Of a stretch of 32,460 nt of DNA, positions 9,861-13,010 are shown one piece after another (position 1 is the stretch's first letter; each line of letters starts with the position of its first letter). Source of the DNA: Phycisphaeraceae bacterium (GTDB taxonomy: Bacteria > Planctomycetota > Phycisphaerae > Phycisphaerales > Phycisphaeraceae); NCBI GenBank assembly GCA_002686995.1, contig NYZC01000365.1, forward strand, positions 1 to 32,460. The letters run 5' to 3'. The notes under the pieces are model-generated. The model was not told the origin of the DNA, did not search any database, and saw only the letters and a program-made list of their open reading frames with translations. The translations under genes and the position numbers were made by a program.

Positions 9861-12800
9861 ATGGCCGTCGAGACCCGCTGGTGGCACACGGAGGGCGGGA
9901 AGGTCGTCTGCACCCTTTGTCCCCGCGAGTGCCACATCCCTGAGGGCAGCCGCGGGTTCTGCTTCGTCCGGGCCAACGTCGACGGGGCGCTCGAGCTGAC
10001 GACCGACGGACGCAGCAGCGGTTTCTGCATCGACCCGATCGAGAAGAAGCCGCTCAATCACTTCCTGCCCGGTACGCCGATCATGAGCTTCGGCACGGCC
10101 GGCTGCAATCTCGGCTGCAAGTTCTGCCAGAACTGGGACATTTCCAAGAGCCGCGAGATGGACCGGCTTGCGGACGAGGCGACGCCCGAGGCGATCATCG
10201 AGGCCGCCGAGCAGACGGGCTGCCGCAGCGTCGCGTTCACCTACAACGACCCCGTGATCTGGGCCGAGTACGCGATCGAGATTTCGAAGATCGCGCGGCA
10301 GCGCGACATTCGCACGGTCGCCGTGACGGCGGGCTACATCTCACCCGACGCGCGGCGCGAGTTCTACAAGTGGATCGATGCGGCGAACATGGACCTGAAG
10401 GCCTTTACGGAGACCTTCTACCGCGGTCTCACGCAGACGCACCTCGAGCCGGTCCTCGACACGCTGAAGTACCTGAAGCACGAGACGGACGTCTGGTTCG
10501 AGATCACCAACCTGATGATTCCCGGGGAGAACGATTCGCCGGACGAGACGCGTCGCATGTGCGCCTGGATCGTCGAGGAGCTCGGCCCCGACGTGCCGGT
10601 CCACTTCACCGCGTTTCACCCCGACTTCAAGATGCGCGACAAGCCGCGCACGCCGCACGAGACGCTGATCCGCGCGCGGCAGATCGCGCAGGAGGCGGGC
10701 ATCGCGTACGTCTACGTGGGCAACGTCAACGACCTCGAACGGCAGAGCACGTATTGCGGCCACTGCGGCCAGATGGTGATCGAGCGCGACTGGTACGACC
10801 TCGGTCGCTACGAGCTGGACGGCGCGCGCTGCCGTGGGTGCGGCCGCGAGGTGCCCGGCGTGTTCGAATCGCAGCCGGGCGACTGGGGACGCAAGCGGAC
10901 GCCGGTCACGATCCGAAAGACGAGCGAGGATCGCGTGACGGTATCGGCGCGCGGCCCTCGGCGACAGGCGGCGGCCGCGACGGGCGTGACGGCGGTGGCT
11001 GCGACGGCGCCGGCGAGCGTCGGCGCATCGTCAGGACGCAAGGTTGCGGAGCGCGGGCCGACGTTCTCCGAGCCCGCGGTACCGCCGCGGATCGAGTTCG
11101 ATGACGACGAGGCGGCGCGCCTGCTGGTTTTCACGCGGCAGGTTGTGGACGCGGCCGTCACCGGAGGCGAGGCGCCGGGCGACCTGCCGGCCGGGCTGCA
11201 CGATTCGTCGGCGTACGGCATCTTCGTGACGCTGCGGCGCGGCGAGATGTTGCGCGCCTGTCGGGGGCGATGGGGCGGCGACGAGGGCGCGAAGCTCGGC
11301 GAGATGCTGCGCCAGGTGGCCGTCGACACCGCGGCATCGGACCAGCGGTTTCCGTCGATCGCGGGGCAGGAGCTGACGCGGCTGGCCCTGGACATCTCGC
11401 TCATGCACAGCCCGCGCGTCGTCGAGGCCACTGGCGAGGACCGGATCGACGAGATCACGGTCGGGACGCACGGACTGGTCATTCATCACCAGCGCGGTCG
11501 CGGTCTGCTGCTGCCTCACGTGGCGACCGAGGCCGGCTGGGACAGCAAGACGTTTCTCGATTCGGTATGCCGCAAGGCGGGCCTGCCCCCGGACACCTGG
11601 CGCCGCGACAGCAGCGCGCGGATCATGACGTTCCAGAGCCGTCTTTTGACCGATCCGGCGCCGCGGCGCGAGCTGGATCGCAAGTCGATCAACGGGCACG
11701 ACCTCCAGGAGCTGACCGACTGGTCCAGTGCGCTGCTGCGCGGTCAGTCACCGTCGCCGCCGAACTCCGTGCTCGCCGACAAGCACGACGAGCAGCTCGG
11801 CCTGTGGATGCAGACGACGAGCGATACGAGCACCGCGGCGATCGGTACCGGCCAGAGCCTCGTCGAGCTCGCCCGGGCCGCAGTCGGATCGCTCACGCAG
11901 CTCAACGAGCAGAAGGGCCACGCACCGTCGCCGATTCGCCAGATCGTGGCGCTGTGGCAGGCGATCCGGCTGGATGCACGGGACTATCCGGGCCGGCATC
12001 GCGGCATGGGGCGTCACGCCGTGCTGGCCCGAAACGGGAAGCAGTGGTCGCTGATCGTCAACGCCGGACCGGGGCAGCGCGACCGGATCACCTCGGCGCT
12101 GGCGAACCTCGGTCTCGGTCCCGAGCAGTGGCGCCGGTCCGACGACGTCCAGGTGACGGCGTTCACGCCCATCGCCTTCGAGGCGCGGCGTCCGCCGCAG
12201 CGCGTGCGCCCGCCTGCCCGCGCCGGGCAGTTCTATCCGGGCGACCCGTCGGAGATGGGCCGGGCCCTTGACGAGTACCTGCCCGGCGACCGCGGCGGGG
12301 CCCGGTGCCGCCGTGCGGTGATGCTTCCCCATGCGGGCTGGGTCTACTGCGGGCAGACGATGGGGCGGGCCCTGGCCGCCACGGAGGTCCCGGACACGCT
12401 GGTGATCATCGGGCCGAATCACACCGGCCAGGGGCCCGCGTGGTCGATCGCGTCGCACACCTCGTGGGACCTGCCGGGCGCTTCGATCCCGATCGCGACC
12501 GACCTGGCGGACGAGCTTGCCGAGCGGGTCGACGGCCTCGTCCACGATGACGTCGCCCACCGCATGGAGCACGGCACCGAGGTGCTGCTGCCTTTCCTGC
12601 ATCGGATCAACCCGTCGATCCGCGTGGTGCCGATCGTCATCGGTCGCTGCCAGTACGAGCAGACGACGGCGATGGCCACGGCGCTGGCGGAGGTGTGCGG
12701 GGAGCTGGGGCAGCCGCCGCTGCTGGTGATCTCGAGCGACATGAACCACTTCGCCGCCGAGCCCGAGAACCGGCGGCTCGATCACATGGCGCTGGACGCG

Positions 12801-13010
12801 ATGGCGACGGGGGATCCGCGCCGGCTCTACGAAACCTGCACGGTGAACCAGATCAGCATGTGCGGGATGGTTCCGGCATGCATCATCATGCAGGCGCTGG
12901 CCATGTCAGGGGACACGCCGAAACCGGAGCTGATCGACTACTCGAACAGCGCTGCCGCATCGGGGGACACGTCGCGGGTGGTGGGATACGCGGGCGTGGT
13001 GATGGATTAG
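9861..13010 (+). CDS. AmmeMemoRadiSam three-domain fusion (AmrS-AmrA-AmrB)
   Basis: This 1049-aa protein starts at ATG 9861 (AAGGA 6 nt upstream); an upstream in-frame extension to 9771 lies in repeat DNA and is rejected. Residues 1-345 are an AmrS-type radical SAM enzyme: CTLCPREC near the start, the 4Fe-4S motif C82-x3-C86-x2-C89, and two CxxC pairs (CGHCG, CRGCG) at its end. An Ala-rich linker (about 350-405) leads to an AMMECR1 domain (about 410-605) with LRACRG around C467. Residues 606-785 are an unassigned segment whose end resembles the end of the AMMECR1 domain. Residues 786-1049 are a Memo domain keeping H824 (LPHAG), H854 (GPNH) and C1001 (MCG), equivalent to the iron ligands described for human MEMO1. 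The three families usually occur as neighbouring genes; their joint function is not established. Repeat copies flank the gene and no partner gene is adjacent. Confidence 0.93.
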   Translation: MAVETRWWHTEGGKVVCTLCPRECHIPEGSRGFCFVRANVDGALELTTDGRSSGFCIDPIEKKPLNHFLPGTPIMSFGTAGCNLGCKFCQNWDISKSREMDRLADEATPEAIIEAAEQTGCRSVAFTYNDPVIWAEYAIEISKIARQRDIRTVAVTAGYISPDARREFYKWIDAANMDLKAFTETFYRGLTQTHLEPVLDTLKYLKHETDVWFEITNLMIPGENDSPDETRRMCAWIVEELGPDVPVHFTAFHPDFKMRDKPRTPHETLIRARQIAQEAGIAYVYVGNVNDLERQSTYCGHCGQMVIERDWYDLGRYELDGARCRGCGREVPGVFESQPGDWGRKRTPVTIRKTSEDRVTVSARGPRRQAAAATGVTAVAATAPASVGASSGRKVAERGPTFSEPAVPPRIEFDDDEAARLLVFTRQVVDAAVTGGEAPGDLPAGLHDSSAYGIFVTLRRGEMLRACRGRWGGDEGAKLGEMLRQVAVDTAASDQRFPSIAGQELTRLALDISLMHSPRVVEATGEDRIDEITVGTHGLVIHHQRGRGLLLPHVATEAGWDSKTFLDSVCRKAGLPPDTWRRDSSARIMTFQSRLLTDPAPRRELDRKSINGHDLQELTDWSSALLRGQSPSPPNSVLADKHDEQLGLWMQTTSDTSTAAIGTGQSLVELARAAVGSLTQLNEQKGHAPSPIRQIVALWQAIRLDARDYPGRHRGMGRHAVLARNGKQWSLIVNAGPGQRDRITSALANLGLGPEQWRRSDDVQVTAFTPIAFEARRPPQRVRPPARAGQFYPGDPSEMGRALDEYLPGDRGGARCRRAVMLPHAGWVYCGQTMGRALAATEVPDTLVIIGPNHTGQGPAWSIASHTSWDLPGASIPIATDLADELAERVDGLVHDDVAHRMEHGTEVLLPFLHRINPSIRVVPIVIGRCQYEQTTAMATALAEVCGELGQPPLLVISSDMNHFAAEPENRRLDHMALDAMATGDPRRLYETCTVNQISMCGMVPACIIMQALAMSGDTPKPELIDYSNSAAASGDTSRVVGYAGVVMD

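What the first reader, a model, noticed from the sequence alone, without database searches (positions are those of the whole stretch)
9861..13010. All three AmmeMemoRadiSam components fused in one 1049-aa protein
The radical SAM enzyme (C82/C86/C89), the AMMECR1 domain (LRACRG) and the Memo domain (H824, H854, C1001) lie on one chain in the order AmrS-AmrA-AmrB. The three usually occur as separate neighbouring genes and their joint reaction is unknown. A covalent fusion is strong evidence that they act in one complex with fixed 1:1:1 stoichiometry, and gives a single construct for structural or biochemical study.
Basis: partly seen in the sequence, partly recalled or inferred. Interest (0 to 1): 0.8.

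Follow-up and report, generated by a model that had tools for sequence, protein, structure and literature searches.

The report
AmmeMemoRadiSam machine on one chain
This bacterial gene joins in one protein the three partners of a widespread enzyme system of unknown function, together with an extra, degenerate copy of one partner (predicted from its fold), so the parts likely work as a single machine that could be made and tested in one piece.

Summary
One open frame (9861-13010, +) encodes AmrS (radical SAM), AMMECR1 and Memo, each above its curated NCBIfam cut-off, with the cited catalytic and metal residues in place. The fusion is not unique: all 120 listed closest database relatives carry the three Pfam domains, JGI gives some a composite rS/B/A name, and 54 of 80 named genome loci hold it in one frame (48 planctomycete titles, 3 Verrucomicrobiota). 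Residues ~601-780 match no Pfam or NCBIfam family above cut-off, but profile-profile comparison, an AlphaFold2 model and fold search agree on a second, degenerate AMMECR1 without the LRxCxG motif. The chain thus holds two AMMECR1 folds; 'fixed 1:1:1 stoichiometry' is wrong at domain level. Natural variants (S|AXM, SA|XM, S|M, SAM, reversed Memo-AMMECR1) are cut or joined at domain borders. The likely mechanism, inferred and untested, is one machine: the AmrS radical acts on a substrate presented by the AMMECR1 pair and handed to Memo's His-His-Cys metal site. Whether the two sites face each other is open: the AmrS-AMMECR1 linker is predicted disordered. An idea that AmrS makes a glycyl radical on Memo was tested and largely rejected.

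The parts
9861..13010 (+). Fused AmmeMemoRadiSam gene, 1049 aa plus stop
   Evidence: relatives with the same architecture
9849..9854 (+). GAAGGA, ribosome-binding-site-like, 6 nt before ATG 9861
   Evidence: sequence printed
9861..10916 (+). AmrS radical SAM domain, residues 1-352
9909..9962 (+). N-terminal Cys motif C17, C20, C24, C34; possible extra metal site (inference)
   Evidence: 109-110 of 120, the rest gaps except one W at C34
10104..10127 (+). CxxxCxxC of the radical SAM [4Fe-4S] cluster, C82/C86/C89
   Evidence: 119, 120, 120 of 120
10755..10841 (+). Cys pairs C299/C302 and C324/C327, zinc-ribbon-like (inference)
   Evidence: 120 of 120 each
10917..11093 (+). Linker residues 353-411, mostly predicted disordered
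   Evidence: pLDDT < 50 at 354-397
11094..11660 (+). AMMECR1 domain (AmrA), residues 412-600
11250..11267 (+). LRACRG motif, residues 464-469
   Evidence: R465, C467, G469 120/120
11661..12200 (+). Hidden second, degenerate AMMECR1-like domain (X), residues 601-780
   Evidence: hhalign P 4e-7 against controls; X-only model pLDDT 92.9, significant PDB matches only to AMMECR1 structures; present in 107 of 120 relatives
12201..13007 (+). Memo domain (AmrB), residues 781-1049
12330..12332 (+). H824, Memo metal ligand (= MEMO1 H49)
12420..12422 (+). H854, Memo metal ligand (= MEMO1 H81)
12861..12863 (+). C1001, Memo metal ligand (= MEMO1 C244)

Best explanation
The gene encodes one 1,049-residue chain with a radical SAM (AmrS), an AMMECR1, a second AMMECR1-like (predicted fold) and a Memo domain, and it likely works as one machine in which the AmrS radical would act on a substrate held by the AMMECR1 pair and passed on to the Memo metal site. 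Shown: the domains, their order, the intact CxxxCxxC, LRxCxG and His-His-Cys residues, and the spread of the fusion. Predicted: the folds, including the second AMMECR1, and a flexible tether after AmrS. Inferred and untested: that AmrS makes the 5'-deoxyadenosyl radical, that AMMECR1 binds the substrate through the region around C467, that the motif-less second AMMECR1 is a scaffold replacing a second AMMECR1 subunit and docking Memo, and that Memo finishes the reaction with iron. The substrate is unknown; nucleoside diphosphate kinase next door in some relatives is a weak pointer to nucleotides.
Against: No reaction has been shown for any member. S|M clusters lack AMMECR1 and X in the stretch searched (L061, L062), so the set is not always kept together. 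X is absent in 13 of 120 relatives, so it is dispensable in some. Plain HMMER with the AMMECR1 profile finds X only weakly (best E 1.2e-4, 2 of 107 sequences above the inclusion threshold), and the fold match is distant (TM 0.52-0.56, rmsd 4.7-6.1). pTM is only 0.60, so domain placement is not predicted. MEMO1 showed no dioxygenase activity on tested substrates (PMC11081632).
Confidence: 0.55

Rival explanations
1. Operon-to-fusion convenience: the domains are co-expressed by fusion but act in successive steps on free intermediates, without channelling or a fixed complex.
For: Long AmrS-AMMECR1 linker with pLDDT under 50. Fusion state changes at least 8 times on a 72-row quick tree, so fusion and splitting look tolerated. 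S|M without A in the stretch.
Against: In the model the A-X-M part is joined by short links, and it stays together in S|AXM forms. AMMECR1-Memo fusion exists in both orders.
Confidence: 0.3
2. Activase reading: AmrS, whose fold is nearest pyruvate formate-lyase activase, makes a glycyl radical on the same chain, at G1042 in Memo's C-terminal R-V-V-G-Y-A-G strand, and Memo is a new kind of glycyl radical enzyme.
Against: G071 and G120 (97 and 96% complete) have one Memo match each, next to an AmrS gene, with Ser at the site. 8 of 26 Memo proteins sampled from AmrS-bearing genomes have Ser. The AmrS-less Memo proteins look like a separate subfamily, so the contrast is confounded. G1042 lies in a predicted strand, 1040-1048.
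Confidence: 0.03
3. The fused frame is an assembly or annotation artefact.
For: The genome is a fragmented draft (446 contigs, 87.6% complete).
Against: 54 of 80 named loci show the same single frame with a near-complete AmrS, including a complete chromosome (Pan216, L074). GC3 is uniformly high across domains.
Confidence: 0.01

Closest known systems
AmmeMemoRadiSam system (NCBIfam TIGR04337, TIGR04335, TIGR04336)
   Same: All three proteins present, each above its cut-off; joint function unknown (recalled).
   Different: On one chain with a fourth domain, X, that no Pfam or NCBIfam model marks. The system is usually met as separate neighbouring genes (recalled).
S-A-X-M fusions already in databases (e.g. 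JGI 'radical SAM enzyme/protein B/protein A')
   Same: Same architecture; 120 of 120 listed relatives (own protein included) carry all three Pfam domains, 107 of 120 have X.
   Different: Nothing structural found; 61% identity at best among full-length hits.
Human MEMO1 (7KQ8, 7L5C)
   Different: Stand-alone protein with Ser where the window has G1042.
Archaeal AMMECR1 proteins PH0010, MM0484, ST0229 (1vaj, 1zq7, 1wsc)
   Different: Single-domain chains; X has no conserved Cys and so no LRxCxG.
Pyruvate formate-lyase activating enzyme (3cb8)
   Same: Nearest fold of the AmrS core, residues 48-286.
   Different: Scores 51.8 bits against a cut-off of 231.75; AmrS has N-terminal and C-terminal Cys motifs.

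Membership tests
AmmeMemoRadiSam radical SAM enzyme (TIGR04337) | Whole-protein score above curated cut-off 220 | tested here: met
   590.6 bits, profile 1-349 of 349
AmmeMemoRadiSam radical SAM enzyme (TIGR04337) | CxxxCxxC cluster motif | tested here: met
   C82, C86, C89; 119-120 of 120
AmmeMemoRadiSam radical SAM enzyme (TIGR04337) | Reductive SAM cleavage | not testable with these tools
   needs protein
AmmeMemoRadiSam protein A / AMMECR1 (TIGR04335, PF01871) | Score above cut-off and LRxCxG, domain 412-600 | tested here: met
   114.0 vs 99; PF01871 121.3 vs 25; LRACRG
AMMECR1 applied to X (601-780) | Pfam/NCBIfam match above cut-off | tested here: not met
   only one AMMECR1 stretch reported, 425-594
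AMMECR1 applied to X (601-780) | AMMECR1 fold (predicted model) | tested here: met
AMMECR1 applied to X (601-780) | LRxCxG motif | tested here: not met
   no column with 20% Cys or more in 107 X sequences
AmmeMemoRadiSam protein B / Memo (TIGR04336, PF01875) | Score above cut-off and His-His-Cys metal site | tested here: met
   253.5 vs 26; H824, H854, C1001 = MEMO1 H49, H81, C244
Extradiol (LigB-type) dioxygenase | 2-His-1-carboxylate iron site | tested here: not met
Glycyl radical enzyme activase (TIGR02493) | Score above cut-off 231.75 | tested here: not met
   51.8 bits

The most novel reading that the evidence does not exclude
Fused AmmeMemoRadiSam proteins carry an unrecognised fourth part: a pseudo-AMMECR1 that pairs with the working AMMECR1 as a built-in heterodimer and docks it on Memo. 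The machine is 1:2:1, and AMMECR1 acts as a dimer throughout the AmmeMemoRadiSam system, with the live copy handing substrate from the radical SAM site to the Memo metal.
Probability: 0.3. Interest if true: 0.65.

Novelty: new variant of a known kind. Interest (0 to 1): 0.45.

Why it matters
AmmeMemoRadiSam proteins occur in archaea and bacteria (controls: Thermotoga, Methanocaldococcus, Sulfolobus, Methanosarcina), and two of the three have human relatives, MEMO1 and AMMECR1 (the latter recalled), without an agreed biochemical function. Single-chain versions in records that are not metagenome assemblies (Pan216, CA13, TBK1r, Rhodopirellula SM50, Stieleria sedimenti) give one construct in which the joint reaction could be sought. 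The degenerate second AMMECR1, and a natural split exactly at its border, say which domains may need to sit together and give clean deletion points.

Tried and rejected
Artefactual fusion: rejected by 54 of 80 named loci with the same single frame. My first count was 55; one search showed that L114 has only the end of AmrS in that frame. Fixed 1:1:1 ratio: rejected by the X domain. X as disordered filler: rejected (16 of 18 ten-residue blocks at pLDDT 90 or more, the others 72 and 78; X-only model 92.9).

Glycyl radical on Memo: pursued because of the PFL-activase fold and the conserved VVGY.G strand, then largely rejected when G071 and G120 showed an AmrS-adjacent Memo with Ser at the site. 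X profile against proteins (only the 7999 candidates sharing most words scored): the two hits annotated AMMECR1 looked like a sequence link, but both contain A followed by a partial X, so they are not counted. Free-standing X: of the 5 hits, 3 carry AMMECR1 sequence; P0122 (246 aa) and P0123 (123 aa) do not, and whether they are fragments was not settled. Conflict systems: one passage of PMC7159879 places a related radical SAM domain in such systems; no such genes were sought.

Substrate from gene context: the window's transketolase, ExbB-like and phosphorylase genes have no match in the stretches of 13 relatives or in 82 further loci; nucleoside diphosphate kinase is near in 9 of 82 loci, but not in the window. 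My ORF caller often chose antisense frames in this GC-rich DNA, so its neighbour clusters are incomplete. Literature: the listings show no paper about the fusion or X; the five papers that hold the system's name were not opened. Read: passages of PMC7159879, PMC11081632 and PMC7694686. Burroughs et al. 2019 (JBC), the main analysis of the Memo superfamily, is not held; what I say of it is recalled or taken from citing passages. In one search only two candidates per genome were scored, so its counts are lower bounds. My own profiles were built from the window's relatives and can miss divergent X. Rows dropped: A1 used 95 of 120 relatives; A3 used the window and 47 of 50 loci that passed; before the tree, L050-L059 and L061 except L052 (same genomes as named loci), and loci without a long S and M (72 of 84 kept). 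The tree is a quick one (SH-aLRT only) with two long rows, L060 and L139.

Full report
OBSERVATION. The frame 9771..13010 (+) is open without stops, and the chosen start, ATG 9861, gives 1049 residues, with GAAGGA six bases upstream. Three NCBIfam models pass their own cut-offs on it: AmmeMemoSam_rS (590.6 vs 220; residues 5-351), AmmeMemoSam_A (114.0 vs 99; 421-593) and AmmeMemoSam_B (253.5 vs 26; 783-1047). Pfam gives Radical_SAM, AMMECR1 and Memo. GC at third positions is 0.92, 0.83, 0.88, 0.89 and 0.91 along AmrS, linker, AMMECR1, X and Memo, with no sign of a frame change. Among 120 listed relatives (own protein included), C82/C86/C89 are kept in 119, 120 and 120 (the one miss a gap), R465/C467/G469 in 120, and H824/H854/C1001 in 120.

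HOW COMMON. A protein search scored 7998 candidates and found 1455 at E <= 0.001; the best 120 are listed, and all 120 carry PF04055, PF01871 and PF01875. Several carry a composite JGI name (radical SAM enzyme/protein B/protein A), so the fusion is known to at least one annotation pipeline. A scan of named genomes with the A-X-M part kept 80 loci of 116 confirmed; by record title, 68 are planctomycetes, 9 Verrucomicrobiota, 1 Deltaproteobacteria and 2 unnamed bacteria. By frames and home-made profiles, 54 of 80 have S-A-X-M in one frame with a near-complete AmrS (48 planctomycete titles, 3 Verrucomicrobiota, 1 Deltaproteobacteria, 2 unnamed), 2 more are cut by contig ends, 3 are S-A-M without X, 4 are S|A-X-M, 5 are S|A-M, 1 is S|M, and 11 are partial, interrupted or incomplete in the stretch held (L114, first counted as fused, has only the end of AmrS in frame). 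Among the 54 are Pan216, CA13, TBK1r, Rhodopirellula SM50 and Stieleria sedimenti. Of 61 genomes (own included, relatives of the same family and order) 43 match the protein at all; in the window and the 13 relatives' stretches that I read, 7 of 14 have S-A-X-M in one frame. In the phylum, 209 of 392 match (a lower bound, two candidates scored per genome). On a 72-row quick tree of joined AmrS and Memo segments, the window is sister to L065 (SH-aLRT 98), fused/split needs at least 8 changes, and X present/absent at least 6. The root is not known, so gains and losses are not told apart.

NATURAL DISSECTION. Clean splits in relatives fall at domain borders: S|AXM in L063, L064, L067 and L080; SA|XM in L052, where the stop of SA overlaps the start of XM, while its nearest relative L075 is fused. 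L136, whose SAX and M frames overlap, may be interrupted and is not counted. L061 and L062 keep S next to M, with no AMMECR1 or X found in the stretch; an AMMECR1 lies elsewhere in those genomes. Other planctomycetes join Memo and AMMECR1 in the reverse order, M then A, without a match to X (L194, L196, L197, L199-L202). AMMECR1 and Memo are thus fused in both orders, which supports a physical partnership. X goes with Memo in the one clean cut between A and X.

MECHANISM (inferred). The most likely reading is one machine: the tethered AmrS domain makes the SAM-derived radical, the AMMECR1/X pair presents the substrate, and the Memo metal completes the reaction. X likely stands in for a second AMMECR1 subunit. 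Gene context gives one weak lead: nucleoside diphosphate kinase is encoded near the cluster in 9 of 82 loci, in 8 of them within 0.5 kb downstream on the same strand; 8 of the 9 lie in the window's 15-row clade, and L093 was not in that tree. It is not in the window. The window's own neighbours (transketolase, ExbB-like, phosphorylase) have no match in the relatives' stretches. From recall only, Burroughs et al. 2019 proposed nucleotide-base and isoprenoid modification contexts for Memo; that paper is not held.

A BOLD IDEA TESTED. The C-terminal Memo strand R-V-V-G-Y-A-G resembles the glycyl radical motif (recalled), and AmrS has an activase-like fold. In 14 planctomycete genomes that are not among the AmrS matches, 14 of 15 Memo proteins have Ser, Thr or Ala at the G1042 site; of 7 Memo proteins from less complete genomes of that kind, 5 do and 2 have Gly. 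But 8 of 26 Memo proteins from genomes with AmrS also have Ser, among them those of G071 and G120, which have one Memo match each beside an AmrS gene. The idea is therefore kept only at about 3%.

VERDICT. The listings of eight literature searches show no held paper about the fusion or X.

Noticed in passing
window 3279-9455 (-), with 2-3580 (-): 2058-aa ORF with DUF7948, beta-propeller (SBBP) and FG-GAP repeats, a likely surface protein. Its FG-GAP repeats appear to leave the frame near the ORF's end while another minus-strand ORF overlaps there; seen by eye, not examined further.
   Followed up: no
L050, L052, L058, L061, L062, L072, L075, L093 (downstream of Memo): Nucleoside diphosphate kinase gene directly downstream of Memo, same strand, in several relatives of the window whatever the fusion state; absent in the window.
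   Followed up: partly
L194, L196, L197, L199-L202: Reverse-order Memo-AMMECR1 fusions (frames of 467-551 aa, no X match) in other Planctomycetota, in G071 and G120 beside an AmrS gene.
   Followed up: partly
L179-L193: 15 Memo proteins of genomes without an AmrS match: 10 of 15 keep His-His-Cys, 14 of 15 have Ser/Thr/Ala where AmrS-type Memo has Gly, and 13 of 15 lie in frames over 400 aa; looks like a separate subfamily.
   Followed up: partly
L143:6045-7079 (G000:C343): The window's genome has a second, separate AMMECR1 gene near a contig end, with no Memo or AmrS found in that 7.3-kb contig.
   Followed up: partly
L144-L152: Nine relatives also carry a second, diverged Memo, 8 of 9 with an AMMECR1 beside it, and no AmrS found in the stretch held.
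   Followed up: partly
window 13341-15311 (+), 15366-15977 (+) and 16642-19278 (+): Transketolase, MotA/TolQ/ExbB-family and alpha-glucan phosphorylase genes downstream; none is found near the relatives' AmmeMemoRadiSam genes.
   Followed up: partly
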